Positions 2,244 to 17,548 of a stretch of 20,289 bases of DNA are shown in pieces. The translations under genes and the position numbers were made by a program. Every line of letters starts with the position of its first letter. Positions within the stretch are counted from its first letter, which is position 1. This DNA is from Bryobacterales bacterium (GTDB lineage Bacteria; Acidobacteriota; Terriglobia; Bryobacterales; Bryobacteraceae). Location of the stretch: contig DNFG01000229.1 of the NCBI GenBank assembly GCA_003487005.1, positions 1-20,289 of the forward strand. The letters run 5' to 3'. The notes under the pieces were generated by a model. That model searched no databases and was not told the DNA's origin. It was given only the letters and a program-made list of their open reading frames with translations.

Positions 2244-3178
2244 GCGACGGCCTCCTCTGGCCTTTGCGACATTGCCCGCAGGGCCTGATCGCGGTACTCA
2301 CGAGCCGTCGCGACAAGGCTGCTGAATCCGTCGCGTAGCAAGAGGCGCTTCACGTCTTCTTCGGTCTTGGCCAGGAACGGAAGCAGCACATCCCGGTCTT
2401 CCGGGCGGATCTCGGATCGTCCCAGAAGCTGCAGTGCCCGAACGAACTGAACGATCTCGTCGATTGAGGGCGGCTTGACCAGGTTGTAGCCCCGCAATGC
2501 CTGCGCAAGTCCGACCGCCTGGGCCTTCAACTCAACCGGGGCATCCACCGTTCGGATGTCGAGAATCTCGGCTTCCTTCTTCACATCGGGATGCTCGATC
2601 CGCTGGTAGAGACTTCGACGGCGCAGCGGGTCCCCAAGCCGTCGTTCCTGGTTTGAAGTCATGACAACGAACGGAACGGATTGAGCCTTCACGGTCCCCA
2701 GTTTCGGCACGGTGATCTGCCAGTCAGAGAGGATTTCGAGCAACAGCGCCTCGAACTTCTGATCAACTTTGTCGAGCTCGTCGATCAGAAGCACCACCGG
2801 CTTCGGCTGGAGCACTGCCTGCAGCAACGGCCCTTGGGTGAAGAAATCAAGGGTATGCAGTCGGGTACGGAGGCTCTCCCACTGGCGGTCGACGACCTGC
2901 GCCTGCGTCTCCAGGAACAGCCGCTGCAGGGCTTCGTCAAAGGAGCCAATCGCCTGACGCTCCGTGATCCCCTCGAAGCATTGGAGGCGAATCAACTCCG
3001 TCTGTGCCGCCGCCGCGAAGGCCTGTGCAAGGTACGTCTTGCCCGTACCGGGCGGACCTTCGATCAGAACGGGCTTCTGCATCTGCGTGGCGAGCCAGAT
3101 GATCTGGACCAAGACGGGGTCAGCAGCGTACCCAGCGATCCGCAAGCCGCATCCCACCAATTCAGGCGAGGTGAACAT
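2240..3178 (-). CDS. MoxR-type AAA+ ATPase
   Basis: 312 aa. Walker A is GPPGTGKT (41-48), Walker B is VLLIDE (129-134), sensor 1 is N176 in MTSN, and 'LGDPLRRRSLYQRIEHPD' (181-198) carries the arginine-finger region with the DPLRRRxLY signature of the MoxR/CoxD-like AAA_5 branch. The C-terminal part is the usual helical lid. MoxR ATPases are cytoplasmic chaperone-like remodelers, mostly paired with VWA-domain proteins; no VWA gene is visible here. Instead it is the first gene of an operon with envelope (type IV secretion-like) proteins, and it overlaps the transglycosylase gene by 4 nt (ATGA). It could power assembly of that complex in place of a VirB11-type ATPase, but this is a guess from context. 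The start ATG at 3178 faces a 93-bp divergent spacer that holds a perfect palindrome. Confidence 0.9.
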   Translation of the reverse strand: MFTSPELVGCGLRIAGYAADPVLVQIIWLATQMQKPVLIEGPPGTGKTYLAQAFAAAAQTELIRLQCFEGITERQAIGSFDEALQRLFLETQAQVVDRQWESLRTRLHTLDFFTQGPLLQAVLQPKPVVLLIDELDKVDQKFEALLLEILSDWQITVPKLGTVKAQSVPFVVMTSNQERRLGDPLRRRSLYQRIEHPDVKKEAEILDIRTVDAPVELKAQAVGLAQALRGYNLVKPPSIDEIVQFVRALQLLGRSEIRPEDRDVLLPFLAKTEEDVKRLLLRDGFSSLVATAREYRDQALRAMSQRPEEAVA

Positions 3179-3271
3179 GCTGGCAGTCTAGGATGCCTCG
3201 CTCTCAGCCCCAAGCGAGTTTCCCGAAACTCGTTTTGCCAAAACAGTGTCTTGCACTACGTTGAAGCCATC
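3179..3271. promoter_or_regulatory. Divergent spacer between AAA+ operon and lipoprotein/DUF362 operon
   Basis: This 93-bp gap separates two divergent operons, so it must hold both promoters. It contains a perfect 18-bp palindrome at 3215-3232 (CGAGTTTC, CC, GAAACTCG), directly followed by a second short dyad at 3232-3244 (GTTTT, GCC, AAAAC). Operators of small dimeric repressors often look like this. The first dyad is followed by TTTT on the plus strand and could be read as a weak terminator hairpin, but its position between divergent starts favours an operator. No clear -35/-10 pair was picked out. Confidence 0.45.
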
Positions 3272-3466
3272 ATGTGCAACCAAGGTCGTGCTTTTCTCCT
3301 TGCTCTTGCCTCGATTTGGCTGAGCGGCTGCGGCCTCCTTCCTCGTCCATGCGAGATGACGAACACGGGATGCCCCGCGAAGCCGGACAGGCCCGACTGC
3401 AAGTGGGAATGGCTGCTTCGTGCCCGTACTACGTCCTGTGAGTCGGACTCGGGAGGCGATCGATAA
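3272..3466 (+). CDS. Small Cys-rich lipoprotein candidate
   Basis: A 64-aa frame starting at ATG 3272. It has a classic lipoprotein signal: a positively charged start (NQGR), a hydrophobic core (AFLLALASIWL) and a lipobox LSGC with the lipidated Cys at residue 20. The mature part is about 45 aa and holds four more cysteines (C27, C34, C43, C56), so disulfides are possible. It would sit in the outer or inner membrane facing the periplasm. It ends 4 nt before the preferred start of the next gene. The RBS is weak (TTGAAG), and the longer frame that contains it upstream is antisense to the ATPase gene and not real. No family was recognised. A chance lipobox cannot be excluded. Confidence 0.4.
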   Translation: MCNQGRAFLLALASIWLSGCGLLPRPCEMTNTGCPAKPDRPDCKWEWLLRARTTSCESDSGGDR

Positions 3467-3470
3467 CACT

Positions 3471-4313
3471 ATGGACACGCCAGCCCATACTGAGCTCCGA
3501 ACGCGCACGCCGCGAACCATTGAGGAGATGGCTCTTCAGCGACTGGCCCTTCGGAAGTTCGCGCCAAACACAGGAGACCTGCTGGGCGCGCAACTCCCCT
3601 GTGGCGCCTGGTCGAACCGGCCGGTCACAGCTATACCCAACGCCTACACAACCGGCCTCGCACTCATCGCACTCGCGAACAGTCCCTGGGCTCCAGAAGT
3701 TCGATCGGCGGTGGAGCGTGGGTTCTCATGGCTCGAACGGACGCGGGGGCGCGAGGGCCACTGGCTATGGCAGTGGAAGTTCCGTCTCTTCGACCGCCAG
3801 GTGCGCTTCGACCCGAGCAAGTTCGGGTGGCCATGGGTTGAGAACACACTCAGTTGGGTAGCACCGACCTCTATCGCCCTGCTGGCATACAGGGCCTGGC
3901 ATCGGCCGTCTGAGAGAGTGCCTTCGGCACTCGCAATGCTCGAAGATCGGGCATGTTCGGCAGGCGGATGGAATGCCGGCAACGGTCATGCCTTTGGCGT
4001 AGATCTTGATCCCCACCCCGACTTCTCGGCCATGGCCCTGTGCGCGCTAAGAGCCCATGGCGAGGGCGGGTCATCTCTCGTCGAAGGAACCGCGCAGTTA
4101 CTTGGTCGGCGGCTTGAAGAGTGCGGGTCGGCATACTCGCTGGCGTGGGGTGTACTCGCGTTGCAGAGGTCGTCCGGCCGGCACTTGGGCACACTCGTAG
4201 AGTCCTTGCATCGGATCTCCGACCCTAACGCGGCAACGCTGAACACCGCGACGCTCGCGCTAACTGCCCTTGCCTTGGAGTCGCCAGCCTTCGACTTCGG
4301 AACCCGCGCATGA
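3471..4313 (+). CDS. Prenyltransferase/squalene-oxidase repeat protein
   Basis: 280 aa from ATG 3471. A GTG at 3420 (297 aa) is the alternative start and would overlap the lipoprotein frame by 47 nt. The protein has repeated alpha/alpha-toroid motifs of the prenyltransferase/squalene cyclase superfamily: 'GAWSNRP...TTGLALIALAN', then 'PWVENTLSWVAPTSIALLAYR', 'SAGGWNAGNG...HPDFSAMALCALR' and two shorter copies near the C-terminus. The DxDD acid motif of hopene cyclases is not visible, and the protein is less than half the length of a cyclase, so a cyclase activity is not supported; it is probably a binding or scaffold barrel. It overlaps the DUF362 gene by 4 nt, which argues for joint function. 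No signal peptide is apparent. Confidence 0.75.
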   Translation: MDTPAHTELRTRTPRTIEEMALQRLALRKFAPNTGDLLGAQLPCGAWSNRPVTAIPNAYTTGLALIALANSPWAPEVRSAVERGFSWLERTRGREGHWLWQWKFRLFDRQVRFDPSKFGWPWVENTLSWVAPTSIALLAYRAWHRPSERVPSALAMLEDRACSAGGWNAGNGHAFGVDLDPHPDFSAMALCALRAHGEGGSSLVEGTAQLLGRRLEECGSAYSLAWGVLALQRSSGRHLGTLVESLHRISDPNAATLNTATLALTALALESPAFDFGTRA

Positions 4314-5263
4314 CGAATCGCCGAAATGCCATCGGAGCACTGGCGCTTGCCGGAACAGGCGGGTGGGCGGTGCGTCAAAGCCTCACTCGCAGAATTCCGG
4401 CAAAGCCACGACCGCTGTCACGTGTGGCGGCGCTTCGATGCGAGTCCTACGACAAGGCTATTGAAGTTGTCTGGGATGGCCTCAAGTTGCTCGCACCGGC
4501 CGTCCGGGGGAAGTCCGTTCTCCTCAAACCGAACCTTGTCGAGTACTCGTCCACGGCACCGATCAACACCCATCCCACGGTCATCGCGGCGGCCGTGGAG
4601 GGCCTCTACCGCTTGGGCGCCGCCCAGGTGACCGTGGGCGAAGGGCCGGGTCACGTCCGCGACACCGAGCTCCTGCTGGAAGAATGTGGTCTCGGCGCGG
4701 CGCTCCGCGATGTCGGCAAAGCGACGTTCGTGGATCTCAACAACGACGAGGTCCACCGTGTGCAGACCACCACGTCACTCACCGCGCTTTCCGAACTCTG
4801 GTTGCCCAAGTCCTTGCTGACAGCTGATGTCGTGATCTCGATGCCCAAGATCAAGACCCATCATTGGGCCGGAGTGACCCTCAGCCTGAAGAACCTCTTT
4901 GGCGTGGTCCCGGGTTCGGTCTATGGCTGGCCGAAGAACGTCCTCCACTGGCAAGGAATCGACAATTCGATCGTCGAACTTGCTGCCACGATTCCGATCC
5001 ACTACGTGATCACAGACGGTATTGTGGCGATGGAGGGTAATGGGCCCTTACATGGCCCTGCAAGAAATCTGGGATGTCTCGTCTTTGCGGATGATCCGGT
5101 CGCCGCCGACGCCCTCTGTTGCGAGCTCATGGGCATTGCCCGGGAGTCGATCCGGCACTTGGTGCTGGGCACCAGACTGGGAAACCCGTTACCAGACGAC
5201 TGGCTGATGTGCGGCGAAAGATACGAAGCCCTGCGACAACGCTTTCTAGTCTGTCCACATTGA
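4310..5263 (+). CDS. DUF362 domain protein
   Basis: 317 aa. The N-terminus (NRRNAIGALALAGTGGWA) looks like a twin-arginine-type or uncleaved signal sequence. The DUF362 core follows: 'VLLKPNLVEYSSTAPINTHPTVIAAAVEGLYRLGAAQVTVGEGPG' (about 70-118), 'LTADVVISMPKIKTHHWAGVTLSLKNLFGVVPG' (about 170-202) and 'ITDGIVAMEGNGPLHGP...VFADDPVAADALCCELMGI' (about 238-277). These are the three family signatures. DUF362 proteins often carry ferredoxin-type Fe-S domains; none is present here. The biochemical role of the family is not established. It is translationally coupled (ATGA) to the prenyltransferase-repeat gene and ends the operon. Confidence 0.88.
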   Translation: MTNRRNAIGALALAGTGGWAVRQSLTRRIPAKPRPLSRVAALRCESYDKAIEVVWDGLKLLAPAVRGKSVLLKPNLVEYSSTAPINTHPTVIAAAVEGLYRLGAAQVTVGEGPGHVRDTELLLEECGLGAALRDVGKATFVDLNNDEVHRVQTTTSLTALSELWLPKSLLTADVVISMPKIKTHHWAGVTLSLKNLFGVVPGSVYGWPKNVLHWQGIDNSIVELAATIPIHYVITDGIVAMEGNGPLHGPARNLGCLVFADDPVAADALCCELMGIARESIRHLVLGTRLGNPLPDDWLMCGERYEALRQRFLVCPH

Positions 5264-5568
5264 GAGTCCCCTGAGAATTCCTCTCTTCCTTTACCAGAAC
5301 ACAACAAGAGCTAATTGGTACGGCTGACATTCCCCGGAGCGCGTCACCAGGATCAGGCGACAGAAACACGCAAGCCGACTTCACGTTCCTAATCCGGAAC
5401 GAGCAGAAATCGCTCCGAGACGTGTATTCCCGGGTGCTGCCACACATGCAGGAGATGGCCGATGAAAGAGTACAAGCCTTATTACGTGACAACGGCGGCG
5501 GCTGAGCCTTTGCCCCACTCGTGAAGCCGACGATTCAGTGCGATGAACACCAGATATACCTCATGGCA
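5264..5568. other. Intergenic stretch at left edge of the conjugation/MBL locus
   Basis: No intact gene. It lies between the ends of two convergent operons (DUF362 on plus, MBL on minus). A weak inverted repeat GAGAG/CTCTC at about 5262-5286, followed by TTCCTTT, could act as a poor terminator after the DUF362 gene. Most of the stretch is covered by the start-less open frame described separately. Confidence 0.4.
5275..5505 (+). pseudogene. Possible gene remnant, open frame with no early start
   Basis: After an in-frame TGA at 5272-5274 the plus frame stays open for 76 codons to TGA 5503-5505. Its second half reads like a real protein C-terminus (QADFTFLIRNEQKSLRDVY, then RVLPHMQEMADERVQALLRD), amphipathic and helical. 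No ATG occurs before the internal methionines near the end, and there is no RBS, so it cannot be an intact gene. It may be the tail of a gene truncated when the neighbouring 5569-11635 block was inserted. It could also be chance, because open frames of this size are common in GC-rich DNA. No family was recognised. Confidence 0.25.
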
Positions 5569-6372
5569 TCAACGTCCCTTTCGGATCGTAAAAGCCTGCC
5601 CGAGCGTCTTATCAATGACGATGTGCCCGTCCCAGCGCGTCGTCAGCACATAGCGCCAACCATCACGGGAGAAGTTCAGCCCTCGTGCATGACGATCATA
5701 GCAGTGCTGTTGAGAGTCGTGTTGGATGGGGCCATCCGAAATGACGACGATGTCCGGATGGCAGTATTGGAACACCTCCTCGCAATAGCCGTTGTCTCGG
5801 CCATGGTGCGAGGCCACGAAAACATTTACCGCCGCGAGCTGCTGGCGAAAGTCATGGTTCTCAAGCAGCGCGAGCCAGCCCGCGCGCTCAATGTCACCCG
5901 GTATGACTGCACAAAAATCACCGTACCTGACGAACGCCACGATGCTGAGATTGTTCATGTCCGAAAAGCGCGGGCCGTAGGGAAGATAGAAATAGGGAAT
6001 AGAGATGCCGGCGAGGTCGGCTTCATTCTGTACGGCTCCGAATCTGCTCTTCATCTCGAGCAAAGCAGCCATCCCCGGCGTGAGCGGGCCTTCCTGCAGC
6101 TTGAGCTGGCGGATCTCATTGACGCTGATCGAAGGGTTCGACAGCAGCCGCTCTATCGGCATCCGCGCCCGCAGATTCGCCAAATCGCTAACATGGTCGC
6201 TGTCGTAGTGGCTGACGACCAGTTGTTGCACCGCCCGCCAGTTCTGCGGTAAATAGACGGATGGTCGGAATCCGTTCGCATCGTGGCCGCAATCGAAGAG
6301 CACCAGGTTGTTGTTATCGGCCACCACCAGTGCCGCCGCGCCGTGTCCGACGTTGAAGATGTCAATTCTCAT
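5569..6372 (-). CDS. ComEC-like metallo-beta-lactamase fold protein (second MBL of the locus)
   Basis: 267 aa with an MBL-fold core like the C-terminal domain of ComEC/Rec2: 'IDIFNVGHGAAALV' (3-16), 'LVLFDCG' (23-29), the metal motif SHYDSDH (H55, D57, D59, H60), 'VIPGDIE' (D160) and 'VASHHG' (H189, H190). All metal ligands expected for an active hydrolase appear present. No signal peptide, so it is cytoplasmic. Family members include nucleases, phosphodiesterases and nucleotide hydrolases; the substrate here is unknown. It starts 8 nt after the stop of the 4-TM gene with AGGG as RBS, so the two are co-transcribed behind the WYL regulator. Its presence with another MBL protein on the divergent side suggests two related hydrolases in one defence locus. 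Confidence 0.88.
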   Translation of the reverse strand: MRIDIFNVGHGAAALVVADNNNLVLFDCGHDANGFRPSVYLPQNWRAVQQLVVSHYDSDHVSDLANLRARMPIERLLSNPSISVNEIRQLKLQEGPLTPGMAALLEMKSRFGAVQNEADLAGISIPYFYLPYGPRFSDMNNLSIVAFVRYGDFCAVIPGDIERAGWLALLENHDFRQQLAAVNVFVASHHGRDNGYCEEVFQYCHPDIVVISDGPIQHDSQQHCYDRHARGLNFSRDGWRYVLTTRWDGHIVIDKTLGQAFTIRKGR

Positions 6373-6380
6373 TTTCTGCC

Positions 6381-7154
6381 CTACCGTTCCAAAACGTCAC
6401 AAGCGCGCAGCAACGTTTCCGCGTAGGTGAATGCGGCCGTGCGGACGGTCGCTTTTGTAAAGAAGAAGAGCCATGCGGCGAGCATCGCGACGGAGACGAT
6501 CAATGATGCAGCCACATTCTCCGGTAAGCGCCAAAGTGCTCCGATATCGTTGAACGGACAAGCCGAGGTGAAAAGGATGAGCGCCTGCCGCACCAATACC
6601 CAGAGAAGGCAGCCCACCGCGATCGTCAGGCCCATGGGTTTGATGCCGAGCGCGTTTCGGCGGAAGCCATAGGAGATGTTCTCCTTGAGAAGCAGATCGA
6701 ATCTCTTGGTATCGTCTGGTCGCGTGTGGTTGAGGAGCCATCTCACTCCCGACTGATAAAGATCATCCGCCTTTTCCGGGTTCTGGGTCTCCTGCTCGCT
6801 ATCCGGAAAGGCCCGGCCAATCTTGGCGGCGAGAAACGCGTGATAGCGCAGCTTGGTTACGCTCTCGATCGTCCGGTCGCGGTGTCGTAGCAATAGGGTG
6901 CTTGGCTTGCCGCCCCACTCGCCGTATAGGCGCTCCTCAAGGCGCTTGCCAAATTCGCGACAGACACTCGTCATGAAATAGAGTCCCCCGCACGACACCA
7001 ACACGGTCAAAGTGCCGGCGAGCGCCGTCGTGGCCGGTGCATAGAGAAGCCCAAGCATGGCCAGCAACGGCAACAAGGCCAACAGCGCCGGATAGAGACG
7101 TGCCTGACGCTCGTAGGGATCGGTTACCTTCGAAACAACATCATCTATCGTCAC
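6381..7154 (-). CDS. 4-TM membrane protein of unknown function
   Basis: 257 aa if it starts at GTG 7154; an AAAGGG site lies 8 nt upstream. The longer frame from ATG 7232 would overlap the WYL gene and adds an Arg-rich extension (RSLRRPRRGR), so it is less likely. It has two hydrophobic hairpins: TM1-2 at about residues 22-63 and TM3-4 at about 175-233. Between them is a polar, helical cytoplasmic region of about 110 residues (FGKRLEERLYGEW..., DDTKRFDLLLKENISYGFRRN). No catalytic motif was recognised. Defence loci often end in membrane effectors that break the inner membrane, and this layout would fit, but that is inference from context only. It lies between the WYL regulator (43-nt gap) and the second MBL gene (8-nt gap) on the same strand. 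Confidence 0.7.
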   Translation of the reverse strand: MTIDDVVSKVTDPYERQARLYPALLALLPLLAMLGLLYAPATTALAGTLTVLVSCGGLYFMTSVCREFGKRLEERLYGEWGGKPSTLLLRHRDRTIESVTKLRYHAFLAAKIGRAFPDSEQETQNPEKADDLYQSGVRWLLNHTRPDDTKRFDLLLKENISYGFRRNALGIKPMGLTIAVGCLLWVLVRQALILFTSACPFNDIGALWRLPENVAASLIVSVAMLAAWLFFFTKATVRTAAFTYAETLLRACDVLER

Positions 7155-7197
7155 AGCCAACACCCTTTCATCTACAATTCCCGCTGGCCCCGTGGTC

Positions 7198-8067
7198 TCA
7201 CGCCCCCTCCTTGGTCGCCGCAAGGATCTCATCGCGGTTCAAGAGAACCAAATGCTGCGAACGCGGGCCATCCGCATCCTCTTCGATGCCCAGTTGGCGC
7301 AAGACATAAAACGCGAGCGCACGTCTCGACTTCAGCACCAGGCGTTCGTCTTTCATCCCGTAATCGAGCGCAATCGCTTTCCGTTGTGCTGCCGCAAGAT
7401 TGGGGTGCGGGGCCAGCACCACGTCCACCATGCGATGCCACGTCGTGTCGGTTAGCGGATCAATCTCGGATGGTTCGGAGCCATGGACTTTCAAGATCCG
7501 CGCGAAAACGAAATCACGATAGGTCTTGTGCTCGTAACAATAGGCCCTTGCGTGCCAGCGAAAGCCGTCAAACGCGATCGCGTGCGGGCTGATTGCGCGC
7601 TCGGTCGGAGCCGGTCGGGTCATGGACTGATAATCGATGCGCAGCTTTGCGCCCTCCCGGATGGCCTGCAATACCGGCCGCAGCACCGAGGGCTTCACCT
7701 GCCGATTGGGGACCTTAAGGAAGCCCAAAGGTGGCATCCACCCGACAAAGTTGGACAACGGCCGTTCCGGCGCCAGGAGTAGGTCGAGGTAGGTTGCAGC
7801 CTCGGGCGATGACACCACCGGCCGGAAGCGCCGCGCCGGCAGATAAGCCTTCAGGGTCTTGTCATAGGCGATGTTCTCGGGCGCAATCTCCATATAACGC
7901 GCCAGATCGAGCGAGGCCTGCGGCGTCGAGATGCCGAAGAAATCGACCAGATCGCTGCGATTCAGCCTCCCCTCCCAATAAACGCGAAACTCAATGAATT
8001 CCAGGCGCTGCGCCTGTCCCCACTTCGTGAGTCGCGCCGCGCCCCTCTGATTGCTGCCCTTCACCAT
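7198..8067 (-). CDS. WYL-domain transcriptional regulator, CapW/BrxR type
   Basis: 289 aa with the three-part CapW/BrxR layout. An N-terminal winged helix (about 20-80) has 'RLEFIEFRVYWEGRLNRSDLVDFFGIS' and 'PQASLDLARY'. A WYL domain (about 130-195) has 'LRIDYQSM', 'SPHAIAFDGFRWHARAYC' and 'RDFVFARI', and a C-terminal WCX-like extension spans about 210-280. CapW and BrxR are dimeric repressors beside CBASS, BREX and other phage-defence operons. They bind inverted repeats in the promoter and are thought to release on a nucleic-acid or damage signal. The GGAGGT RBS lies just before ATG 8067. It starts 126 bp from the divergent MBL/E2-E1/JAB operon, so it probably represses both sides and itself. 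The family call is strong; the regulated set is inferred. Confidence 0.9.
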   Translation of the reverse strand: MVKGSNQRGAARLTKWGQAQRLEFIEFRVYWEGRLNRSDLVDFFGISTPQASLDLARYMEIAPENIAYDKTLKAYLPARRFRPVVSSPEAATYLDLLLAPERPLSNFVGWMPPLGFLKVPNRQVKPSVLRPVLQAIREGAKLRIDYQSMTRPAPTERAISPHAIAFDGFRWHARAYCYEHKTYRDFVFARILKVHGSEPSEIDPLTDTTWHRMVDVVLAPHPNLAAAQRKAIALDYGMKDERLVLKSRRALAFYVLRQLGIEEDADGPRSQHLVLLNRDEILAATKEGA

Positions 8068-8193
8068 CGCACCTCCACATGTTGTGCTCGTCGCCTGACA
8101 ATGAGTATAATAAATATATGGGTATAAAAGCTAGATGTATGTTGGGCGGCCGCATGAGCGCTTAAGGCTTGCGCTGAAAAGGAGAAGTTCCAG
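8068..8193. promoter_or_regulatory. Divergent control region of the defence-like locus
   Basis: 126 bp, much more AT-rich in its middle than the flanks. On the plus strand a consensus TATAAT (8106-8111) follows TTGTGC (8082-8087) with 18-bp spacing, a good candidate promoter for the MBL/E2-E1/JAB operon. Two direct copies of GTATAAxA (8105-8112 and 8122-8129), 17 bp apart, lie over and after this -10 and may be operator half-sites for the WYL regulator. A weak inverted pair AGCGC/GCGCT (8157-8161, 8171-8175) precedes the AAGGAG ribosome site of the MBL gene. Minus-strand promoter elements are not clear, though TATACT is present in reverse near 8105. Confidence 0.45.
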
Positions 8194-9414
8194 ATGGGTA
8201 CCACAATCACGTTCTTTCCCGTCGCTAACGGCGACATGACCCTGATCAAGTTGGGCGACGCTGCCGAAACGACCATTCTGATTGACTGCAATATTCGCGA
8301 AACCGGAGGCGGACAGGACGAGCCGATCCGCGATGTGGCGGTGGACTTGCGAAAGCGCCTGAAACGCGACAAGAAAGGCCGCCCTTACGTCGATGCGTTC
8401 CTTTTGAGCCATCCGGACAAGGATCACTGCCGGGGCATCCGCAATCACTTCTACCTCGGCGCGCCGGCCGATTATCCCGACGACAAGAAGGAGGACGCCG
8501 AGAAGAAAATCTTCATCCGTGAAATCTGGTCGTCACCCATAATTTATCGCCGCGCGTCGAAGAACCACCCTCTCGGTGCCGATGCTGTTGCTTTAAACAA
8601 AGAGTCGAAGCGCCGCGTCCAGGTGAACCGGGACGAGTATTTCGACGTCGAGGACGGTGACCGCATCCTCGTCCTCGGCGAAGACGAGGACGGAAAGACC
8701 GATGATCTCGACCCGATTCTCATCAAGGTTGACGAGGTGATCACGCAGATCAACGGCGCGGAAAGTAACTGCTTCTCGGCCACTCTACTCGCACCCCTTC
8801 CGGGCGCGGACGACGAAAGCGAAGAGGAACTCCGCAAGAACCATTCGAGCGTCATCCTGAATATCGAACTCGCGGCCGATGAAGATGGCGGCGCTACCTC
8901 CTGCTTTCTCACCGGCGGAGATGCCGAAGTGCTCATCTGGGAACTGCTCTGGCAGAAGCACGAGGAAAGCTCGGAAGTTCTGGAATACGACCTCTTGCAG
9001 ACGCCCCACCATTGTTCCTGGCATTCTTTGTCTTACGATAGCTGGTCTGAACTGCGTGAAGATGCGGAAGTCTCGCAGGATGCGCGTTCCGCCCTATCCC
9101 AGATCCGCGACAAGGGCAAAATCGTCGCCAGCTCTGCACCCATTAAGGATGACGATTGCGATCCGCCCTGCTGGGGCGCGAAGCGCGAATACGAAGACAT
9201 CGTCAAAGGAGCCAAGGGGACGTTCTATTGCACAGGCGAGTATCCGAAGGCCGATGCGGTCGCCCCTCTGGAATTCACCATCGGCGATTCCGGGTTCGAT
9301 GTGAAGCCCCTGGCGAAAGCCGCCGCTTCCACGCTGCGTGGCTCCGTTACGACATCCGGGCTGACCTTCCCTCCCAAGCCTGTCCAGCCCAACAAGCCGG
9401 CGGGGTTCGCGTAA
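8194..9414 (+). CDS. MBL-fold protein of ubiquitin-like conjugation operon, with C-terminal tail
   Basis: 406 aa, cytoplasmic. The MBL core shows 'ITFFPVANGDMTLIKL' (5-20), 'TILIDC' (27-32), the metal motif SHPDKDH (H73, D75, D77, H78), 'LTGGDAE' (D243) and 'LQTPHHCSWHS' (H272/H273). A large acidic insertion (about 90-235) separates the halves. After the last core strand near residue 371, residues 380-406 form a Ser/Thr/Pro-rich, presumably flexible tail ending in NKPAGFA. It is the first gene of the operon and is followed after 5 nt by the E2-E1 fusion. Operons joining an MBL protein to E1, E2 and JAB proteins have been noted in comparative genomics of prokaryotic ubiquitin-like systems. The hydrolase substrate is unknown; DNA, nucleotides or a signal molecule are all possible. 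Its tail could be what the E2-E1 protein conjugates. Confidence 0.88.
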   Translation: MGTTITFFPVANGDMTLIKLGDAAETTILIDCNIRETGGGQDEPIRDVAVDLRKRLKRDKKGRPYVDAFLLSHPDKDHCRGIRNHFYLGAPADYPDDKKEDAEKKIFIREIWSSPIIYRRASKNHPLGADAVALNKESKRRVQVNRDEYFDVEDGDRILVLGEDEDGKTDDLDPILIKVDEVITQINGAESNCFSATLLAPLPGADDESEEELRKNHSSVILNIELAADEDGGATSCFLTGGDAEVLIWELLWQKHEESSEVLEYDLLQTPHHCSWHSLSYDSWSELREDAEVSQDARSALSQIRDKGKIVASSAPIKDDDCDPPCWGAKREYEDIVKGAKGTFYCTGEYPKADAVAPLEFTIGDSGFDVKPLAKAAASTLRGSVTTSGLTFPPKPVQPNKPAGFA

Positions 9415-9419
9415 TAGCC

Positions 9420-11174
9420 ATGACGTGGATCGTGCGTCAACCGACGCGGTTCCTTCAAGAGCGCGAGGTCCTCGACACACTCGCCCGAGAAGTCAGTTGG
9501 ATTCGCGGCATCCACTGGCGGATCGGGGATGGCCTTATCGTGGCGGTAGATATCGACCTCGACATCCACGGGCGCATCTGGGAGGTCGATTTGACCTACC
9601 CGGACGCGTTTCCGGATACCCCAGCGTATATTCGCCCACGCGACCGGTCTCAGCGCTGGTCGATCCATCAATACGGCGAAGGCGGTTCGTTCTGTCTCGA
9701 GTGGCGCGCTGACAATTGGCATCCGGGCGTGACCGGTGCCGATTTGGTGCGAAGCCTCCATCGCCTCCTATCTGCTGAAATGCATCCGGAAAGCCCAACG
9801 GCGGTGCCCTCGGCGCATGCGCTCACGGTCGGCCAGGAACGTCGTTCGGATACTCATCGCCTCATTGCGACCCCTCGCCTGATCGAGATCGTGGGCGCTC
9901 TGCCGCCCAACACGGTGAAACCGATCCAAGTGCGCAGCCTTCTTCATCATTCAGGCCTCGACAAGGTTGTCACGGTTGCCGTAATTAGCGACATCGAAGG
10001 TGCCACCGGGAAGATGGACGCCATCCCCGACGTTCCCAAGGGCCTCAGCTCCTACATCCCCTTGTTTGCCTGGCGATCTGACGGATTTGTGATGCTAAGC
10101 GACGCCTTTAATGCAGAGGCCCGGATCAAAACGGTCGAGGACCTCACAGGCCTTATTGCCGATCTCGGCTTTGCGGATCGCGTTTCCCTCACCCCCGATT
10201 CCGGCTACACGACTCTGGGTGATCGTCTCGTGGTGGTGATCGGTGCGTCGCCTTCCTCCTTTCGATGCTGGGGCATCGAGGGCACGAGCCTGAACACCTA
10301 TGCGGTCATTGAAGCGGAGGATTTCGCCCGTCGGTTGCCCGCGAGCTACGCGCATCTGAAGGATTTTCGGATTGGCATTGCCGGGCTCGGCTCGGTGGGC
10401 AGCAAGATTGCGGTCTCGCTCGCCCGCGCCGGATGTCGAAAGTTTCTCCTCATCGACGAAGATATTTTCCTGCCCGAGAACATCTGTCGAAACGAACTGT
10501 CGTGGGATGCCGTCGGCGTGCACAAGGCGGAAGCCGTCAAGGAAGCCCTAAGCCTGATTGCGGCTGACATCGATACGGATGTACGGGTGTACCGGCTGGC
10601 CGGGCAGGAATCGTCCGTGGCCGCAGCCTCGGTCCTCAAAGCGCTTGCGTCCAGCGATCTCATCATTGATGCGACCGCCCGACCGGAGGTGTTCACGCTT
10701 CTCGCCGCCGTCGCCAAAGCCCATCAGCGCCCCATGTGTTGGGGCGAGGTCTTTGCCGGAGGAATCGGCGGCATGATCGCCCGCGCGCGACCGCGCCTGG
10801 ACCCAACGCCTTTGGCGGTACGCAATGGCATTCTGGAGCATCTTCAAACGTTGCCCCCCGCGCCCTACGTCAATGCGACGCGTTACGACGTGGACGGCGA
10901 CGAGCCGCACGTCGCAGACGACGCCGATGTCAGCCAGATTGCATCCAGCTTGGCACGTCTCGCTCTGGATACGCTCATGCAGCCAAAGCAAAGTTCCTTC
11001 CCCTATCCCGCCTACCTCATTGGCCTTCGTCCGGAGTGGGTATTCTCAGGTTCCTTCGATACCCACCCCCTTGCGATCGAGGGGGAAGGCTGGGATGCAG
11101 ACGCCCCTACCGATGATGATCGCAATGCCGCTATCGCGAGCCTGCTTGAGATTCTGAAAAGAGAACACCGATGA
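9420..11174 (+). CDS. E2-E1 fusion enzyme for ubiquitin-like conjugation (Cap2-like)
   Basis: 584 aa from ATG 9420. An in-frame extension back to 9156 lies inside the MBL gene and is rejected. Residues 1-122 are an E2-like domain: 'YPDAFPDTP' (60-68), H83, then catalytic Cys92 in 'GGSFCLEW' and 'DNWHP' (98-102). Residues about 140-300 are a linker domain. Residues 310-584 are a ThiF/E1 adenylation domain: 'GIAGLGSVGS' (319-328) is the nucleotide loop, 'LLIDEDIFLPENICRNEL' (343-360) carries D348, N354 and R357, K369 is the conserved lysine, and 'IIDATAR' gives D417. It resembles Cap2 of type II CBASS, which adenylates a C-terminal carboxylate and passes it to the E2 cysteine for ligation to targets. 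The usual E1 cysteine position near the C-terminus has no Cys; only C339, C356 and C440 follow the start of the E1 domain. The JAB gene overlaps by 4 nt. Confidence 0.92.
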   Translation: MTWIVRQPTRFLQEREVLDTLAREVSWIRGIHWRIGDGLIVAVDIDLDIHGRIWEVDLTYPDAFPDTPAYIRPRDRSQRWSIHQYGEGGSFCLEWRADNWHPGVTGADLVRSLHRLLSAEMHPESPTAVPSAHALTVGQERRSDTHRLIATPRLIEIVGALPPNTVKPIQVRSLLHHSGLDKVVTVAVISDIEGATGKMDAIPDVPKGLSSYIPLFAWRSDGFVMLSDAFNAEARIKTVEDLTGLIADLGFADRVSLTPDSGYTTLGDRLVVVIGASPSSFRCWGIEGTSLNTYAVIEAEDFARRLPASYAHLKDFRIGIAGLGSVGSKIAVSLARAGCRKFLLIDEDIFLPENICRNELSWDAVGVHKAEAVKEALSLIAADIDTDVRVYRLAGQESSVAAASVLKALASSDLIIDATARPEVFTLLAAVAKAHQRPMCWGEVFAGGIGGMIARARPRLDPTPLAVRNGILEHLQTLPPAPYVNATRYDVDGDEPHVADDADVSQIASSLARLALDTLMQPKQSSFPYPAYLIGLRPEWVFSGSFDTHPLAIEGEGWDADAPTDDDRNAAIASLLEILKREHR

Positions 11175-11635
11175 TCACCCTGATTCTCCCGCGGCCACTC
11201 CAGGACACAATTAGAGCAGCGTTGCTTAAGGCCGGTCGGCGCGAAATCGGCGGCATTCTCATGGCGGAGCACGTTGGTCCTAACGAATTTGAAGTCAAAG
11301 ACCTCACGGTTCACCGGCGCGGGACCGTTTTCAATTTCGTTCGGGTCCTCGAAGACGCGTTAAGCCGCTTGCGCGCGTTCTTTGAGCGCGCAGAACACGA
11401 CTATACGAGGTTCAACTACATTGGCGAATGGCACTCCCATCCCAGCTTTGTACCGTCCCCCAGCCCGCGCGACGATGCCTCGATGCGCGAGATCGTCGAG
11501 GATCCGAAGGTGGGCGCTAACTTCGTTGTGCTCCTGATTGTTAAGCTGGAAAGCCCGCATGAGATGGCGAGCTCGGTTCACACCTACCTCCCGGACGGAA
11601 CGAAACACACCTCGATCTTAGTCTGCAGTGATTGA
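11171..11635 (+). CDS. JAB/JAMM isopeptidase (Cap3-like deconjugase)
   Basis: 154 aa, a single JAB/MPN domain. The catalytic Glu is E25 in 'REIGGIL', and the zinc motif is complete: H88 and H90 in 'GEWHSHP', S98 and D101, fitting H-x-H-x7-S-x2-D. JAMM metalloproteases cut isopeptide or peptide bonds after ubiquitin-like C-termini. In type II CBASS the equivalent (Cap3) removes the conjugated CD-NTase from its targets, and in Bil systems BilC processes the ubiquitin-like protein. Here it overlaps the E2-E1 gene by 4 nt (ATGA), so the two are made together. It is the last gene of the operon. The enzyme class is secure. Its exact substrate depends on what the E2-E1 protein conjugates, and no separate ubiquitin-like gene is visible. 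Confidence 0.92.
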   Translation: MITLILPRPLQDTIRAALLKAGRREIGGILMAEHVGPNEFEVKDLTVHRRGTVFNFVRVLEDALSRLRAFFERAEHDYTRFNYIGEWHSHPSFVPSPSPRDDASMREIVEDPKVGANFVVLLIVKLESPHEMASSVHTYLPDGTKHTSILVCSD

Positions 11636-11980
11636 GTCCTCGACGATGCCGATCTGATGTTGACTGGCTTGTGGGCATCCGCGTTCGCCCGAGTCGCAGT
11701 CGTGTTCGGAATCCGACACATGCCACCTGTGCGCAGAGGAAGGGTCCAAGGCGCTCGGCATCACCACGCTGCGGATTCCACAGGTCCTTTCGGGGCTGAC
11801 GCAATAGGGAACGATAAACGCCCTTCAGTGTTCATACCGCACGCTCGTCCCCAACACGGAAGTAGGGCGTTTGTGTCTGGGCGCTCCGTGAACACTGGCA
11901 GCGTGGGACGTTCTGTCAGATGGTCTGCGCCGAGGCTCTCCGGCGCTCCGGGGGCACGCGCTTTCATCCTCACTGGTAGC
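11636..11980. other. 345-bp spacer at right edge of the locus, no gene seen
   Basis: It lies between the ends of two convergent genes (JAB on plus, HTH on minus). Frames that cross it give low-complexity Arg/Ala/Pro-rich products and are shadows. It contains a near-perfect dyad with no loop at about 11700-11717 (GTGTTCGGA/ATCCGACAC) and the interlocked inverted repeats at 11816-11910. No tRNA, IS end or clear rho-independent terminator was found. Confidence 0.6.
11816..11910. repeat. Interlocked inverted repeats
   Basis: Two perfect 9-bp complementary pairs are interleaved: AAACGCCCT (11816-11824) with AGGGCGTTT (11864-11872), and CAGTGTTCA (11826-11834) with TGAACACTG (11889-11897). Shorter 6-bp pairs keep the same order: CACGCT (11840-11845) with AGCGTG (11900-11905), CGTCCC (11846-11851) with GGGACG (11905-11910), and CACGGA (11855-11860) with TCCGTG (11885-11890). 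The order A-B-A'-B' allows a pseudoknot or alternative hairpins if transcribed. It could be a structured RNA, a recombination site or a relic of mobile-element ends; nothing in the sequence decides between them. Confidence 0.5.
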
Positions 11981-12538
11981 TTACTCCAACAACCCCCTCA
12001 CGCTCGGCGCTTTCACCGCGAGAGTCTGATCGGGAAACCCGTTGAGAACCAGCCACTCTCTCTGCGCTGGAGCCAGCTTTGCGTAGGGCACAAGATGGGG
12101 ATGTTTCCTCAGGAACGCTTCAAATGACGACTCGGCAATGCCACCCTTGAATCGACGCAGGTAGCCGTTCTTCAGCAACCGCTGAACTGTCGTCCGCGAG
12201 CGGCCGATATCCCGCGCCACCTGGCCGACGGTCAGGGGTTGATGCTCCAGTTCGATCTCGCGCTTCTGGATTCGCTGCTTGTGTTTCCTCATGGCAGCCT
12301 TGCTGCGTCGATTCGGATTCTCCCCCTGCTCGATACCATCCCATTCATGGCGATCCCAGCGTGGCTTCCTCCGCCACGGCCACTGTTCGCGCGGGAGCAC
12401 GCGTCGAAGAAACTCCTTGATCGCCTCCGGTGTCCTCTGCAACTCATCGGCCACGGCAGTCAACGGTCGACGCAGATTCTCGGCTTCCATTGCCCAAGCC
12501 ATAGCCACTCGCGATTCTGATGTCGTCCAGTTCCGCAT
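11981..12538 (-). CDS. HTH DNA-binding protein, Myb-like plus C-terminal HTH
   Basis: 185 aa. The N-terminus (NWTTSESRVAMAWAMEAENLRRPLTAVADELQRTPEAIKEFL) looks like a Myb/SANT-type helical unit. A basic linker (about 50-98) follows, then an HTH at about 101-145: 'PLTVGQVARDIGRSRTTVQRLLKNGYLRRFKGG', followed by 'HPHLVPYAKLAPAQREWLVLNGFP'. The same C-terminal layout (HTH, 'G-I-E-S', 'HP', 'L-P-WLV-GYP') is found in the protein encoded at 13791-14582, so the two are related. It is probably a cytoplasmic transcription factor; its target is unknown. The start ATG 12538 has AGGAG about 17 nt upstream, and that AGGAG sits in the loop of a 7-bp hairpin. The gene ends opposite the conjugation operon. 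Confidence 0.7.
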   Translation of the reverse strand: MRNWTTSESRVAMAWAMEAENLRRPLTAVADELQRTPEAIKEFLRRVLPREQWPWRRKPRWDRHEWDGIEQGENPNRRSKAAMRKHKQRIQKREIELEHQPLTVGQVARDIGRSRTTVQRLLKNGYLRRFKGGIAESSFEAFLRKHPHLVPYAKLAPAQREWLVLNGFPDQTLAVKAPSVRGLLE

Positions 12539-12937
12539 GCTCGACGACCCGCGTTCTCCTGCGGGTCTCGAATGGCATGCTAGGTTTCCTCCGCGGTTTC
12601 AACAATTGCCACGATTTGCGTTTCTGGCGCGGGGCGCGGAGCGTGGCGCGCAACGCCTACAGCTGCGTAACTACCTGCATGGACACACCTTAGGCTCCCA
12701 TCGGCGCCATTCGCCTTGGGGCCGCGGGGTTGTCCGCGGTCTTGGTCGAAAATTATCGATCAACCCGCGCGTACGGGCTCCCGGAATGGCCATTGCGCCG
12801 CCATGTGTGGTTGCATAGACCCTGGGGCCGTTTTAAGCTGAAGCCTCTCACCCGAGTCATTCCAAACGCCGCCCTGGGTCCTCCGCTCAAGGGTTGAAGC
12901 CGCTTTGGCATCTCGAGCGAAGTCCGGTGCACTGGTA
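12539..12937. other. 399-bp divergent spacer
   Basis: Between the minus-strand HTH gene and the plus-strand unknown gene. It must contain promoters for both, but no convincing -35/-10 pair was identified. Visible structure: the hairpin at 12546-12567 near the HTH start, and two CCGCGG blocks at 12722-12727 and 12734-12739, 6 bp apart, which can form a hairpin on either strand. The rest appears non-coding in all frames; the long frame 12279-12818 is antisense to the HTH gene. Confidence 0.5.
12546..12567 (-). promoter_or_regulatory. Hairpin with Shine-Dalgarno sequence in its loop, before the HTH gene
   Basis: On the minus strand the mRNA leader reads GACCCGC, AGGAGAAC, GCGGGTC, so a 7-bp GC-rich stem presents AGGAG in an 8-nt loop just upstream of the HTH start (ATG 12538). 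No in-frame start codon lies closer to this AGGAG. The hairpin could modulate ribosome binding, or serve as an operator dyad for the HTH protein itself. Confidence 0.4.
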
Positions 12938-13804
12938 ATGAACGAACCGCGTCCTGAGCGAGCCAAGAACGCCGCCACCGCATTGATTGATCGCAGGATG
13001 CTCGAACAATCGCTGCGAGTTCCATGGAAGCAGTTGTCGGCGGCAGTAGACCAGATCGTCGAATGGCGGGCATTCTCTCTGTGGGTGAGAGCCATCGCTG
13101 ACACCGAGGGATCGCTGCCGCGAGTTGTATGCGAAGCGATCAAGAAGCGATGTCCTGGCTATCTGGAAGCAAGGTCCGGAGGCCCGGTGGGCAAACTGTG
13201 GACCGAGCTGCTCGCTTGGTCCGAACGAACCGTGTTCGCGCAAGCTGTGCGGGGTGGTTGGATCGAAGCGGCGCATTACTATTCCGGCACCGATCCCCGC
13301 TCAGAGCCAGTGTGGCAACACTGGGAACGATTCACCGCTGCTTGGGCAATCACCAAGCCGGAGCGGTACCCATCCTTCGCGGAGTGGTGGACCGAAGCAC
13401 AGCATACCGACGCCGAAGTCGAGGGCCCGCTCGTCGAACACGCCATTGAGTCTGCGGCCTACTCATATTGGGCCGTTCTTGTCTTGATGACGAACGGCGA
13501 TCAGCCAGCCCTTCGAGAGCACATCGAGCAGCGTTGCCCAGCTTTCTTCACAAGGAACTTCCTCCCTGCCGGAAGCGACGATGCTGCAGTAGATCGATTC
13601 CGCGAGGCGCTGGAAGCCGATCTAATCGGCAGCGGCCCTCGTCTCGATGAGGCAAGATCCGCCGCTCGTTCGCACCTTCGGCTCCTGCGAGTAGCGGCCT
13701 ACTTTGCGGTCTGCAAGGAACAAGCGCGTCTGACTCCCGCCGCACCTATCCCGGCTTTTGAGGCATGGCTGCAGCAAGCGGACAACTTTGTCATCGCCCC
13801 GTAG
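12938..13804 (+). CDS. Hypothetical protein, no family recognised
   Basis: 288 aa from ATG 12938; a TTG at 12905 would add 11 residues, and neither has a strong RBS. The protein is rich in Trp, Ala and Glu and looks all-helical and soluble, with no signal peptide or TM helix. The two halves look loosely alike: 'LWTELLAWSERTVFAQAVRGGW' and 'AHYYSG...WQHWERFTAAWAITKPERYPSFAEWWTEAQ', then 'AIESAAYSYWAVLVLMTNGDQPALREHIEQRCPAFF' with an earlier 'VCEAIKKRCPGYLEARSGG'. The 'I-x-x-RCPxF/Y' motif occurs twice (about residues 67-75 and 197-205), suggesting an internal duplication. It lies between two related HTH genes and its end overlaps the downstream convergent HTH gene by 14 nt. Coding is likely because the frame is long and protein-like; function is unknown. 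Confidence 0.6.
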   Translation: MNEPRPERAKNAATALIDRRMLEQSLRVPWKQLSAAVDQIVEWRAFSLWVRAIADTEGSLPRVVCEAIKKRCPGYLEARSGGPVGKLWTELLAWSERTVFAQAVRGGWIEAAHYYSGTDPRSEPVWQHWERFTAAWAITKPERYPSFAEWWTEAQHTDAEVEGPLVEHAIESAAYSYWAVLVLMTNGDQPALREHIEQRCPAFFTRNFLPAGSDDAAVDRFREALEADLIGSGPRLDEARSAARSHLRLLRVAAYFAVCKEQARLTPAAPIPAFEAWLQQADNFVIAP

Positions 13805-14582
13805 CACTCGCCTTCTTCTGCTGCTGTTGGCTTCTCGGATATCCATGGACAGCCACGAGCCAGTATTGCGTTTCGGGTGGAAGCTTCTCGAATCCGATTT
13901 CTGCCGGATGTTCCTTACAGAGTACGGAGAGCGATGCTTCCGTGATTCGACCTCTGCGCCGGCGAATCCAGCCGTGCCGCTGCCAGCGCCGGACATCGGC
14001 TTCCGAAGCTTGCAGGACCTCCATCAGTTCCTTTGTCTTGAAGCCGCCGAAGAAATCGGCAGACTTCCCCAGTCGCCGTAGGCGCGCGACGACGGACCCA
14101 ATTGTACGCCCAAGCCGGCGGGCGATGAGTTCTTTGGGTTGACGGGCGAGGGATAAAAGCGCCAGGTCCGATCCGCGATCCCATTGCTGACGTTGTGCCG
14201 GACGGCTGCTCCGTAACCCGAGGGCTCGGGCTCTCTCGGCAATGTCGCGTCGAGTCCAGTCTGGGTGTCGGACTTGAAGTTGGGTGATCGCGGTAGTCGC
14301 GGACTTCTTGCCAAGCGGATATCGGATCCGCAACAGGTTGTCGTCTTCGGTTGTCCAGGGCTCGCCGGAGGAATGTTCCTCGGTGGGTTGCGTGGCAGAG
14401 GCGATAGGCGAGTTACTGATCGACCCGATTCGGTAGGTCAATGCGCGAGTTCCGTTGGTTGGCGGCTGAACTTGATTGCGCTCAGCACACTTGCCGAGTT
14501 CGGGGACCGAGAAGACACTGTTTGCCGGGGCTCCAGAATGCCCGGGGGAGGGAGGGCGCTGGGAGAAAGTTCCCTTCGGCAT
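13791..14582 (-). CDS. Myb/SANT-like DNA-binding protein with C-terminal HTH
   Basis: 263 aa from ATG 14582, chosen because AGGTGG lies 5 nt upstream; a GTG three codons earlier overlaps this site. The first 70 residues are low-complexity. Then come two Myb/SANT-like units: 'PWTTEDDNLLRIRYPLGKKSATTAITQL...TRRDIAERARALGL' (about 75-123) and 'QWDRGSDLALLSLARQPKELIARRLGRTIGSVVARLRRLG' (about 133-172). An HTH follows at about 183-226 (LMEVLQASEADVRRWQRHGWIRRRRGRITEASL), then 'KEHPAEIGFEKLPPETQYWLVAVHGYP'. It is a longer relative of the HTH protein encoded at 11981-12538. It is likely a DNA-binding regulator; whether it controls the unknown gene, the conjugation operon or the sigma operon cannot be told. 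Confidence 0.72.
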   Translation of the reverse strand: MPKGTFSQRPPSPGHSGAPANSVFSVPELGKCAERNQVQPPTNGTRALTYRIGSISNSPIASATQPTEEHSSGEPWTTEDDNLLRIRYPLGKKSATTAITQLQVRHPDWTRRDIAERARALGLRSSRPAQRQQWDRGSDLALLSLARQPKELIARRLGRTIGSVVARLRRLGKSADFFGGFKTKELMEVLQASEADVRRWQRHGWIRRRRGRITEASLSVLCKEHPAEIGFEKLPPETQYWLVAVHGYPRSQQQQKKASATGR

Positions 14583-14932
14583 GGCTACCACCTGTTGAAT
14601 CTCTACATGGGTTGGTTCCGGCTACGGCACAGCGATTCTGATCTCCAACGAGACACCTCGGGCCGCAACTGCTGGCTCCCTCAGGTCGGGAATGTGGACA
14701 AGTTGCCCCTACCATCACAAGAGCTGAAGCTGGCGAAATGTCCAACCTCACCCTCTTTGGCTGTTGGATGGCTCGTGTTTACAGGGATTTGGGGACCTGA
14801 GGCCGTGAGCCTCAAGCAAAGCGAAAATATTCGGGACTTTTTCCTGCGCTCAGACCTTTTAATAGATAGAGGGGATGTCGCTCAATCGACACGACTCTCT
14901 TGCACGTCGGCCAAGGGTCGGCAGGGATTCTC
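14583..14932. promoter_or_regulatory. 350-bp divergent spacer before the sigma/CHAT operon
   Basis: It separates the minus-strand Myb gene from the plus-strand sigma operon and so should hold both promoters. A perfect dyad TGAGGC-cgtga-GCCTCA is at 14798-14814, and an AT-rich TTTTAATAGATAG block at about 14858-14870 could be a -10 region about 65 bp before the sigma gene start. No matching -35 was identified. A long plus-strand frame that runs through it (from 14265) is antisense to the Myb gene and not protein-like. Confidence 0.35.
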
Positions 14933-17513: not shown

Positions 17514-17548
17514 TCACAAAACGGAGTCTCACCGGAGGGAGACCGCCC

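What the first reader, a model, noticed from the sequence alone, without database searches (positions are those of the whole stretch)
5569..11635. Defence-like locus: MBL + E2-E1 + JAB, divergent from WYL regulator + 4-TM protein + second MBL
Six genes form two divergent operons around one 126-bp control region. E2-E1 and JAB are the conjugation and deconjugation parts of type II CBASS or Bil systems, yet there is no CD-NTase and no free ubiquitin-like gene; an MBL protein holds the first position. A CapW/BrxR-type regulator is a strong marker of phage defence. The MBL-E2-E1-JAB combination has been noted in comparative genomics. The link with a WYL regulator, a 4-TM protein and a second MBL protein looks less described.
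Basis: partly seen in the sequence, partly recalled or inferred. Interest (0 to 1): 0.85.

Follow-up and report, generated by a model that had tools for sequence, protein, structure and literature searches.

The report
Nuclease-like protein tagged for protein conjugation
A bacterial anti-virus gene cluster seems to use a DNA-cutting-type enzyme as its "ubiquitin": the enzyme carries the same short tail that related systems use to glue a different enzyme onto other proteins, which suggests that the tail is a swappable tag.

Summary
The six genes are real and at the stated places. The right arm (MBL1, E2-E1, JAB) belongs to the class that NCBIfam calls the anti-phage 6A-MBL system, but in an unusual form. 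Its E2-E1 (Cap2) and JAB (Cap3) are separate genes of the type II CBASS lineage, and MBL1 is a composite: a 6A-MBL body (to about residue 370) with the C-terminal tail of a CBASS CD-NTase (about 375-406, ending KPAGFA). The same GFA tail ends the gene upstream of related Cap2s at all 38 loci where it could be read, on CD-NTases, Pycsar-type cyclases and MBLs. A B. cereus CBASS cyclase ending KPGGFA is conjugated through that Ala (published). Other tails go with other Cap2 lineages. So MBL1 is most likely the conjugated protein, which explains why no ubiquitin-like gene is found. The left arm has a CapW regulator, a 4-TM protein and a second MBL; 4-TM/MBL2 is a recurring module, found alone or with 6A-MBL operons. 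A same-genus genome has other DNA in place of all six genes. Conjugation, nuclease activity and phage defence are untested here.

The parts
5569..6372 (-). MBL2: second ComEC-like metallo-beta-lactamase-fold protein (267 aa, PDC-M48B type); no Gly/Ala conjugation tail
6381..7154 (-). 4-TM protein (257 aa from GTG; ORF opens at 7232); helical membrane family without a Pfam, NCBIfam or PADLOC name, recurrent partner of MBL2 and of 6A-MBL operons
7198..8067 (-). CapW/BrxR-type WYL transcription factor
8068..8193 (.). 126-bp divergent control region
   Evidence: no inverted repeat found
8194..9414 (+). MBL1: 6A-MBL family, ComEC-like MBL fold, predicted conjugated protein
9316..9411 (+). MBL1 C-terminal tail, residues 375-406, ends KPAGFA: shared with CD-NTases and Pycsar-type cyclases beside related Cap2s; low confidence (as if disordered) in the model
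9420..11174 (+). Cap2-type E2-E1 fusion (584 aa from ATG); conserved E2 Cys95 and candidate E1 Cys443 in the numbering of the ORF from 9411
11171..11635 (+). Cap3-type JAB/JAMM isopeptidase, separate gene
5370..11949 (.). variable stretch: in same-genus G568 1963 bp of other DNA stand in its place; left flank conserved over 3.7 kb, right flank only over one HTH gene (11950-12598)

Best explanation
It is a chimeric 6A-MBL anti-phage locus. CapW keeps the divergent genes low and releases them on a stress or infection signal (inferred from CapW). The E2-E1 protein activates the C-terminal Ala406 of MBL1, carries MBL1 as a thioester and joins it to lysines of target proteins; the JAB protein takes it off again (inferred from the experimentally studied Cap2/Cap3 and the shared tail). 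MBL1 thus plays both parts that CBASS gives to its cyclase: it is the modifier and the enzyme, here a ComEC-like phosphodiesterase or nuclease instead of a nucleotide cyclase. Conjugation would prime or place the enzyme. The 4-TM protein with MBL2 is a membrane-linked executor module (least certain). Shown here: homology, shared tail, tail and Cap2 lineage going together, gene association, replacement of the whole locus in a same-genus genome. Inferred: every biochemical step and the defence function.
For: Upstream ORF readable at 38 of 40 Cap2 loci; all 38 carry the tail (36 end GFA, 1 GFG, 1 GFA+R), over three CD-NTase groups (25), Pycsar-type cyclases (10) and MBLs (3). Window tail against 35 non-MBL tails: mean score 65.5; highest of 500 shuffles 31.4; internal control 15.6. 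PMC11153139 (passages): a cyclase whose last peptide is KPGGFA is joined to PspA lysines, and A331E loses immunity. PMC10097602 (passages): C-terminal Gly/Ala conserved in operons with full Cap2 and Cap3, not in those without. Among the 120 listed MBL1 relatives 67 end GFA, 1 GFG, 45 RYA, 7 HG or HG+2; 7 tail changes on the body tree. Contig lengths of window-type Cap2 hits recur for 21 of 50 GFA/GFG-tailed MBLs and 0 of 36 others (p 1.4e-6). The model is confident to about residue 370 and under pLDDT 50 at 375-406. Regulator, Cap2 and Cap3 match by sequence. Replacement in G568.
Against: No biochemistry. A shared tail could be a docking peptide without conjugation. In fused 6A-MBL systems many MBLs have 1 to 6 residues after the last Gly, and one (L089) has no fitting end, so the rule is clean only for the GFA and RYA classes. 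The fuller motif KxxGF(A/G) holds in 26 of 38 upstream proteins; only the last three residues are near constant. Anti-phage function rests on the NCBIfam name, PADLOC and CapW; the source paper was not found. The roles of 4-TM and MBL2 are guesses; the 4-TM model is poor (pLDDT 51). The right edge of the variable stretch rests on one duplicated gene.
Confidence: 0.68

Rival explanations
1. Two independent defence systems side by side: a CapW-controlled MBL1-Cap2-Cap3 system, and a separate 4-TM/MBL2 pair (PDC-M48-like), sharing a site but no mechanism.
For: In the 14 4-TM loci of the two Acidobacteriota surveys, 8 have an MBL2 next to 4-TM and no 6A-MBL operon in the fetched stretch; two of these stretches (L088, L090) stop well short of their contig's end, one MBL2 (L087) is a weak match, and one locus (L060) has a lone E1-like ORF nearby. 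The nearest hybrid locus with context, L002, and 6A-MBL loci L062 and L063 do without this 4-TM family.
Against: In G148, G350, G961, G791 and G980 4-TM and MBL2 follow MBL1-E2-E1-JAB in the same direction; in the window 4-TM follows CapW; other 6A-MBL loci have another small membrane protein beside WYL or after E2-E1-JAB; the six genes are replaced together in G568.
Confidence: 0.3
2. The tail is a non-covalent docking peptide: Cap2 and Cap3 bind and regulate MBL1, but MBL1 is not transferred to targets.
For: Only sequence supports conjugation here; a docking function would also conserve a tail.
Against: In CBASS, Cap2 makes a covalent link through the last residue of such a tail, and changing that residue lowers or abolishes it (PMC10097602, PMC11153139; passages). 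E2 Cys and the JAMM motif are kept.
Confidence: 0.17
3. Cap2 conjugates some ubiquitin-like protein coded elsewhere, and MBL1 is only a target or a downstream enzyme (Bil-like).
For: E2-E1-JAB sets with free ubiquitin-like proteins exist (6d, 6e in PMC1779556; passages).
Against: No such gene among the 26 window ORFs scanned, and the tail sits on MBL1 and changes with the Cap2 lineage.
Confidence: 0.08
4. Housekeeping operon without a defence role.
Against: Patchy: 7 of 396 genomes of the phylum, 10 of 389 of the class, 8 of 398 Pseudomonadota, own or centre genome included; relatives on 245 plasmid records; replaced by other DNA in the same genus; CapW.
Confidence: 0.05

Closest known systems
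Type II CBASS (CD-NTase, Cap2, Cap3, effector, at times CapW)
   Same: Cap2-type E2-E1, separate Cap3-type JAB, CapW-type divergent regulator, C-terminal Ala tail on the first gene's product
   Different: First gene is a ComEC-like MBL, no CD-NTase, so no cyclic nucleotide is expected; 4-TM and second MBL instead of a known CBASS effector
6A-MBL system (NCBIfam NF058524/NF058523; Iyer 2006 type 6a)
   Same: MBL body, 412 bits over a cut-off of 220; E2, E1 and JAB domains
   Different: E2-E1 and JAB are separate genes of another Cap2 lineage (86.6 bits against a cut-off of 320 for the fused protein), and the MBL carries the CBASS-type GFA tail
ComEC-like MBL nucleases of Hachiman (HamM), Avs, Lamassu, DRT (PMC12799240, passages)
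   Same: MBL fold of the ComEC type next to a defence module
   Different: [quoted passage not shown] no such protease family was seen in the locus, which has a conjugation and deconjugation pair
PDC-M48 (PADLOC candidate)
   Same: MBL2 matches PDC-M48B at 208 bits
   Different: The 4-TM partner and five relatives match no PADLOC model

Membership tests
6A-MBL anti-phage system | MBL protein over NF058524 cut-off | tested here: met
   412 bits, cut-off 220
6A-MBL anti-phage system | fused E2-E1-JAB (Cap2_3) protein over NF058523 cut-off | tested here: not met
   86.6 bits against 320; two separate genes
6A-MBL anti-phage system | protects against phage | not testable with these tools
   no bench work; the name's source paper was not found
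Type II CBASS | CD-NTase | tested here: not met
   first gene is an MBL; no CD-NTase among the 26 window ORFs scanned with Pfam or the six locus genes scanned with PADLOC; only the tail of MBL1 matches a cyclase model
Type II CBASS | Cap2-type E2-E1 fusion | tested here: met
Type II CBASS | Cap3-type JAB | tested here: met
   PADLOC JAB 193 bits; NCBIfam Cap3 model only 31 bits, below its cut-off of 200
Type II CBASS | C-terminal Gly or Ala tail on the first gene's product | tested here: met
Type II CBASS | effector that answers a cyclic nucleotide | not testable with these tools
   no known CBASS effector found; 4-TM and MBL2 of unknown role
CapW/BrxR WYL regulators | near full-length match to solved CapW | tested here: met
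   7tb6, residues 13-283 of 289, 241 bits
Bil (ISG15-like) systems | free ubiquitin-like protein gene | tested here: not met
   none among 26 window ORFs scanned with Pfam; no ORF of 50 aa or more lies clear of the six genes inside the locus; a gene elsewhere in the genome was not sought
PDC-M48 | M48B MBL | tested here: met
   208 bits
PDC-M48 | M48A partner | tested here: inconclusive
   4-TM protein and five relatives have no PADLOC match at E<=1; what M48A is was not seen

The most novel reading that the evidence does not exclude
Cap2/Cap3 is a portable conjugation module defined by the tail, not by the enzyme. Short C-terminal tags (GFA type, RYA/RHA type, others) are transplanted between unrelated folds (CD-NTase, class III cyclase, ComEC-like MBL), and whichever enzyme carries the matching tag becomes a ubiquitin-like modifier. 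The window shows the swap: a 6A-MBL body wearing a CBASS tag beside a CBASS-lineage Cap2.
Probability: 0.7. Interest if true: 0.88.

Novelty: new variant of a known kind. Interest (0 to 1): 0.78.

Why it matters
It is not settled what conjugation of the cyclase does in CBASS (the physiological targets remain to be determined, PMC10097602, passages). If nature puts the same tag on a nuclease-like enzyme and on another class of cyclase, conjugation cannot be specific to cGAS signalling: it would be a general way to prime or place an immune enzyme. That makes the question testable by swapping tails between bodies. It also gives a substrate to the MBL-E2-E1-JAB operons described in 2006 that lack any ubiquitin, and it points to a membrane-protein/MBL module without a family name.

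Tried and rejected
Fixed six-gene system: rejected as too strong. In 17 genomes found by MBL1 (rows dropped before the count: own genome; G748, chosen as a centre because it had the locus; the repeat of G225; fragment G955; weak hits G607, G485, G708) the 4-TM family is in 8, another small membrane protein (hydropathy only) in 5, a patatin-like ORF in 1, none found in 3 (one of them at a contig end); MBL2 in 7; CapW in 5; all of 4-TM, MBL2 and CapW in 2.

One family for all the small membrane proteins: A2 against A6 gave probability 0.3 percent in hhalign; not supported, though the profiles are thin.

Operator palindrome in the control region: none found. The 4-TM structure model is too poor (pLDDT 51) for a fold search; none was made. 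No tRNA and no RNA family at gathering score in the window. The literature for a published MBL conjugate, for '6A-MBL' and for 'PDC-M48': nothing found in the held open library; subscription papers and preprints were not searchable. Other papers seen in passages: CapW (PMC9122588; one remark on other defence-associated WYL regulators), BrxR homologues (PMC9122601; 48 percent beside known defence systems), shared defence domains (PMC10952713; no MBL mentioned).

The tail test was also run on MBL2: none of 7 has a comparable end, so the tail is not a general MBL feature. Both trees are quick trees (SH-aLRT only), with long branches flagged. The body tree holds 76 rows: the window, 64 of the 120 listed hits (every second GFA/GFG and RYA row, all 7 others) and 11 loci. 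The Cap2 tree holds the window and 34 of the 40 loci. For the RYA lineage 6 plasmid loci were read of 40 listed (290 records matched).
Full report
Observation. The six ORFs exist as described. MBL2: Lactamase_B 28.1 bits and the ComEC MBL domain 9ic4. 4-TM protein: no family over its cut-off in Pfam or NCBIfam and no PADLOC match; four long helices in a poor model. WYL: CapW 7tb6, 241 bits. MBL1: NCBIfam '6A-MBL_enzyme', 412 bits against a cut-off of 220. E2-E1: PADLOC E1-E2 607 bits, solved Cap2. JAB: Prok-JAB. Two starts differ from the ORF list: by comparison with relatives the 4-TM protein begins at GTG 7154 and E2-E1 at ATG 9420.

The tail. The first hint was that residues 374-406 of MBL1 match the last 34 positions of a PADLOC CD-NTase model. 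One scan of GTDB genomes with the E2-E1 alignment gave 40 loci. tblastn showed that in several of them only the C-terminus of MBL1 matches, directly upstream of E2-E1. An upstream ORF that ends near the E2-E1 start could be read at 38 of 40 loci; all 38 carry the tail: 36 end GFA, one GFG, one GFA followed by Arg; the fuller motif KxxGF(A/G) ends 26 of them. Without the last 45 residues the 38 and the window fall into five groups that BLAST does not link. Ten of the 38 were scanned with PADLOC, one to three of each group: three groups are CD-NTases (distantly related to each other), one is Pycsar cyclases, one is MBLs; Pfam finds the class III cyclase domain in the one cyclase tried (L015). 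The MBL group is the window, L002, L017 and L037. The window tail scores 65.5 on average against the 35 non-MBL tails, at most 31.4 over 500 shuffles, and 15.6 against an internal control stretch.

What the tail does elsewhere. [quoted passage not shown] PMC10097602 (passages): Cap2 forms a thioester with the C-terminal residue, Cap3 cuts there, and the Gly/Ala end is conserved in operons with full Cap2 and Cap3 but not in those without. The window's MBL1 ends NKPAGFA. The commentary PMC10449767 was read in its first of two parts.

Tail and Cap2 go together, bodies do not. The 120 listed MBL1 relatives (of 3320 hits) end GFA (67), GFG (1), RYA (45) or PHG with or without two more residues (7). 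On a tree of 76 bodies (tails removed) the tail type needs 7 changes; the window (GFA) lies in a well-supported set of nine with four RYA rows. On a tree of 35 Cap2s the body type needs 8 changes and MBL bodies appear at least twice. In the second lineage, represented by L062 (MBL1 tail SRYA), related Cap2s on six plasmids (read of 40 listed) stand beside CD-NTases or a class III cyclase that end GGGRYG, GGGRHA (two loci, one with a split CD-NTase), GGRYA plus five residues, GDERYA and GGTRHA. So two tags are each shared by the same three folds. In systems with a fused E2-E1-JAB the MBL ends RAG, HG, GFG or GYG, either exactly or with 1 to 6 further residues; L073 (YG plus four) and L089 (no fit) are the poorest cases.

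The other arm. In the two Acidobacteriota surveys by the 4-TM protein (396 and 399 genomes) 14 loci outside the own genome were found. Six have MBL1-E2-E1-JAB (one of them, L059, shows only the end of E2-E1-JAB at a contig end), ten have a PDC-M48B-like second MBL, two have both, none has neither. Over all 23 4-TM loci read (L017 and L037 nearly identical; some found through E2-E1 or MBL1, so not an even sample) 17 have MBL2, 14 the MBL1 operon, 8 both. The window's layout, 4-TM and CapW divergent from MBL1 and E2-E1-JAB, recurs on Acinetobacter plasmids: in the 12 records listed for both searches the 4-TM and MBL1 hits lie about 1 kb apart on opposite strands, and the one read in full has WYL between them and a PDC-M48B MBL after E2-E1-JAB. 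G961 and G791 have all components with a fused E2-E1-JAB. In G148 the order is MBL1, E2-E1-JAB, 4-TM, MBL2 in one direction. Other 6A-MBL loci have another small membrane protein beside WYL or after E2-E1-JAB (L002, L062, L063, L067, L068, L069, L070, L071; hydropathy only), or a patatin-like ORF (L064, seen by motif only; no PADLOC match). This looks like an effector slot.

Replacement in the genus. In the same-genus genome G568 the window's 1658-5369 aligns at 92 percent to one contig, and 11950-12273 and 12482-12598 align at 92-93 percent further on. Between them G568 has 1963 bp with two other ORFs (331 and 245 aa, no Pfam or PADLOC match) instead of 6580 bp. Right of 12598 the contig no longer matches the window, and the HTH gene at the right edge is duplicated there, so the right border is less sure than the left. 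Two further same-genus genomes had no 4-TM or 6A-MBL match, but they lack a close copy of the left flank gene too. So the six genes are present or absent together in the one comparison that can be made.

Mechanism and limits. Best reading: CapW-controlled expression; Cap2 activates Ala406 of MBL1 and conjugates MBL1 to targets; Cap3 reverses; 4-TM and MBL2 execute at the membrane. The first and last steps are analogy; the middle step has strong sequence support; nothing was measured. The held library has no paper with '6A-MBL' or 'PDC-M48', and none of the searches for MBL with Cap2, Pycsar with Cap2, or metallohydrolase with CapW listed a title or abstract that reports MBL conjugation. Iyer 2006 (PMC1779556, passages) described MBL beside the triple E2-E1-JAB protein as type 6a and proposed that such systems add ubiquitin-like or ThiS/MoaD proteins to targets; the passages seen do not name the MBL as the conjugated part.

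Noticed in passing
L014, L015, L019, L020, L022, L025, L027, L028, L039, L041; L095 2257-3858: Pycsar-type class III cyclases carry the Cap2 conjugation tails (GFA or RHA) beside E2-E1: a Pycsar/CBASS hybrid that I did not find described in the held library. Two of the ten GFA members were scanned with PADLOC; the rest cluster with them by BLAST.
   Followed up: partly
L064 12176-13357: A patatin-like ORF (motif only) sits between E2-E1-JAB and a second MBL in a 6A-MBL locus; patatin-like phospholipases are effectors in CBASS.
   Followed up: partly
L106 3712-5674: In the same-genus genome G568 the site holds two unrelated ORFs (331 and 245 aa) without any family match: perhaps another, unknown cassette at a variable spot.
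   Followed up: partly
window 11981-12538 and 13791-14591: Two HTH-type or HTH-like proteins lie on the right side; the first is duplicated in G568, next to the variable site.
   Followed up: no
L066 5639-6846, L083 12946-14064: 6A-MBL loci without WYL have an HTH plus IrrE-type peptidase pair or fusion upstream, which recalls the other CBASS regulator pair; L057 has a LexA-like protein there.
   Followed up: partly
L092 2792-3837: The CD-NTase upstream of Cap2 on a Rhizobium plasmid is split into two ORFs.
   Followed up: no
L069 10440-11132: The small membrane protein after a 6A-MBL operon on a Rhizobium plasmid matches Csx27 of type VI-B CRISPR weakly (17.8 bits).
   Followed up: no
window 14900-20239: Sigma-factor-like ORF, an unnamed ORF, S41 peptidase and a TPR-CHAT protein form a cluster with a distant copy (28-39 percent) in G568 (L107).
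   Followed up: no
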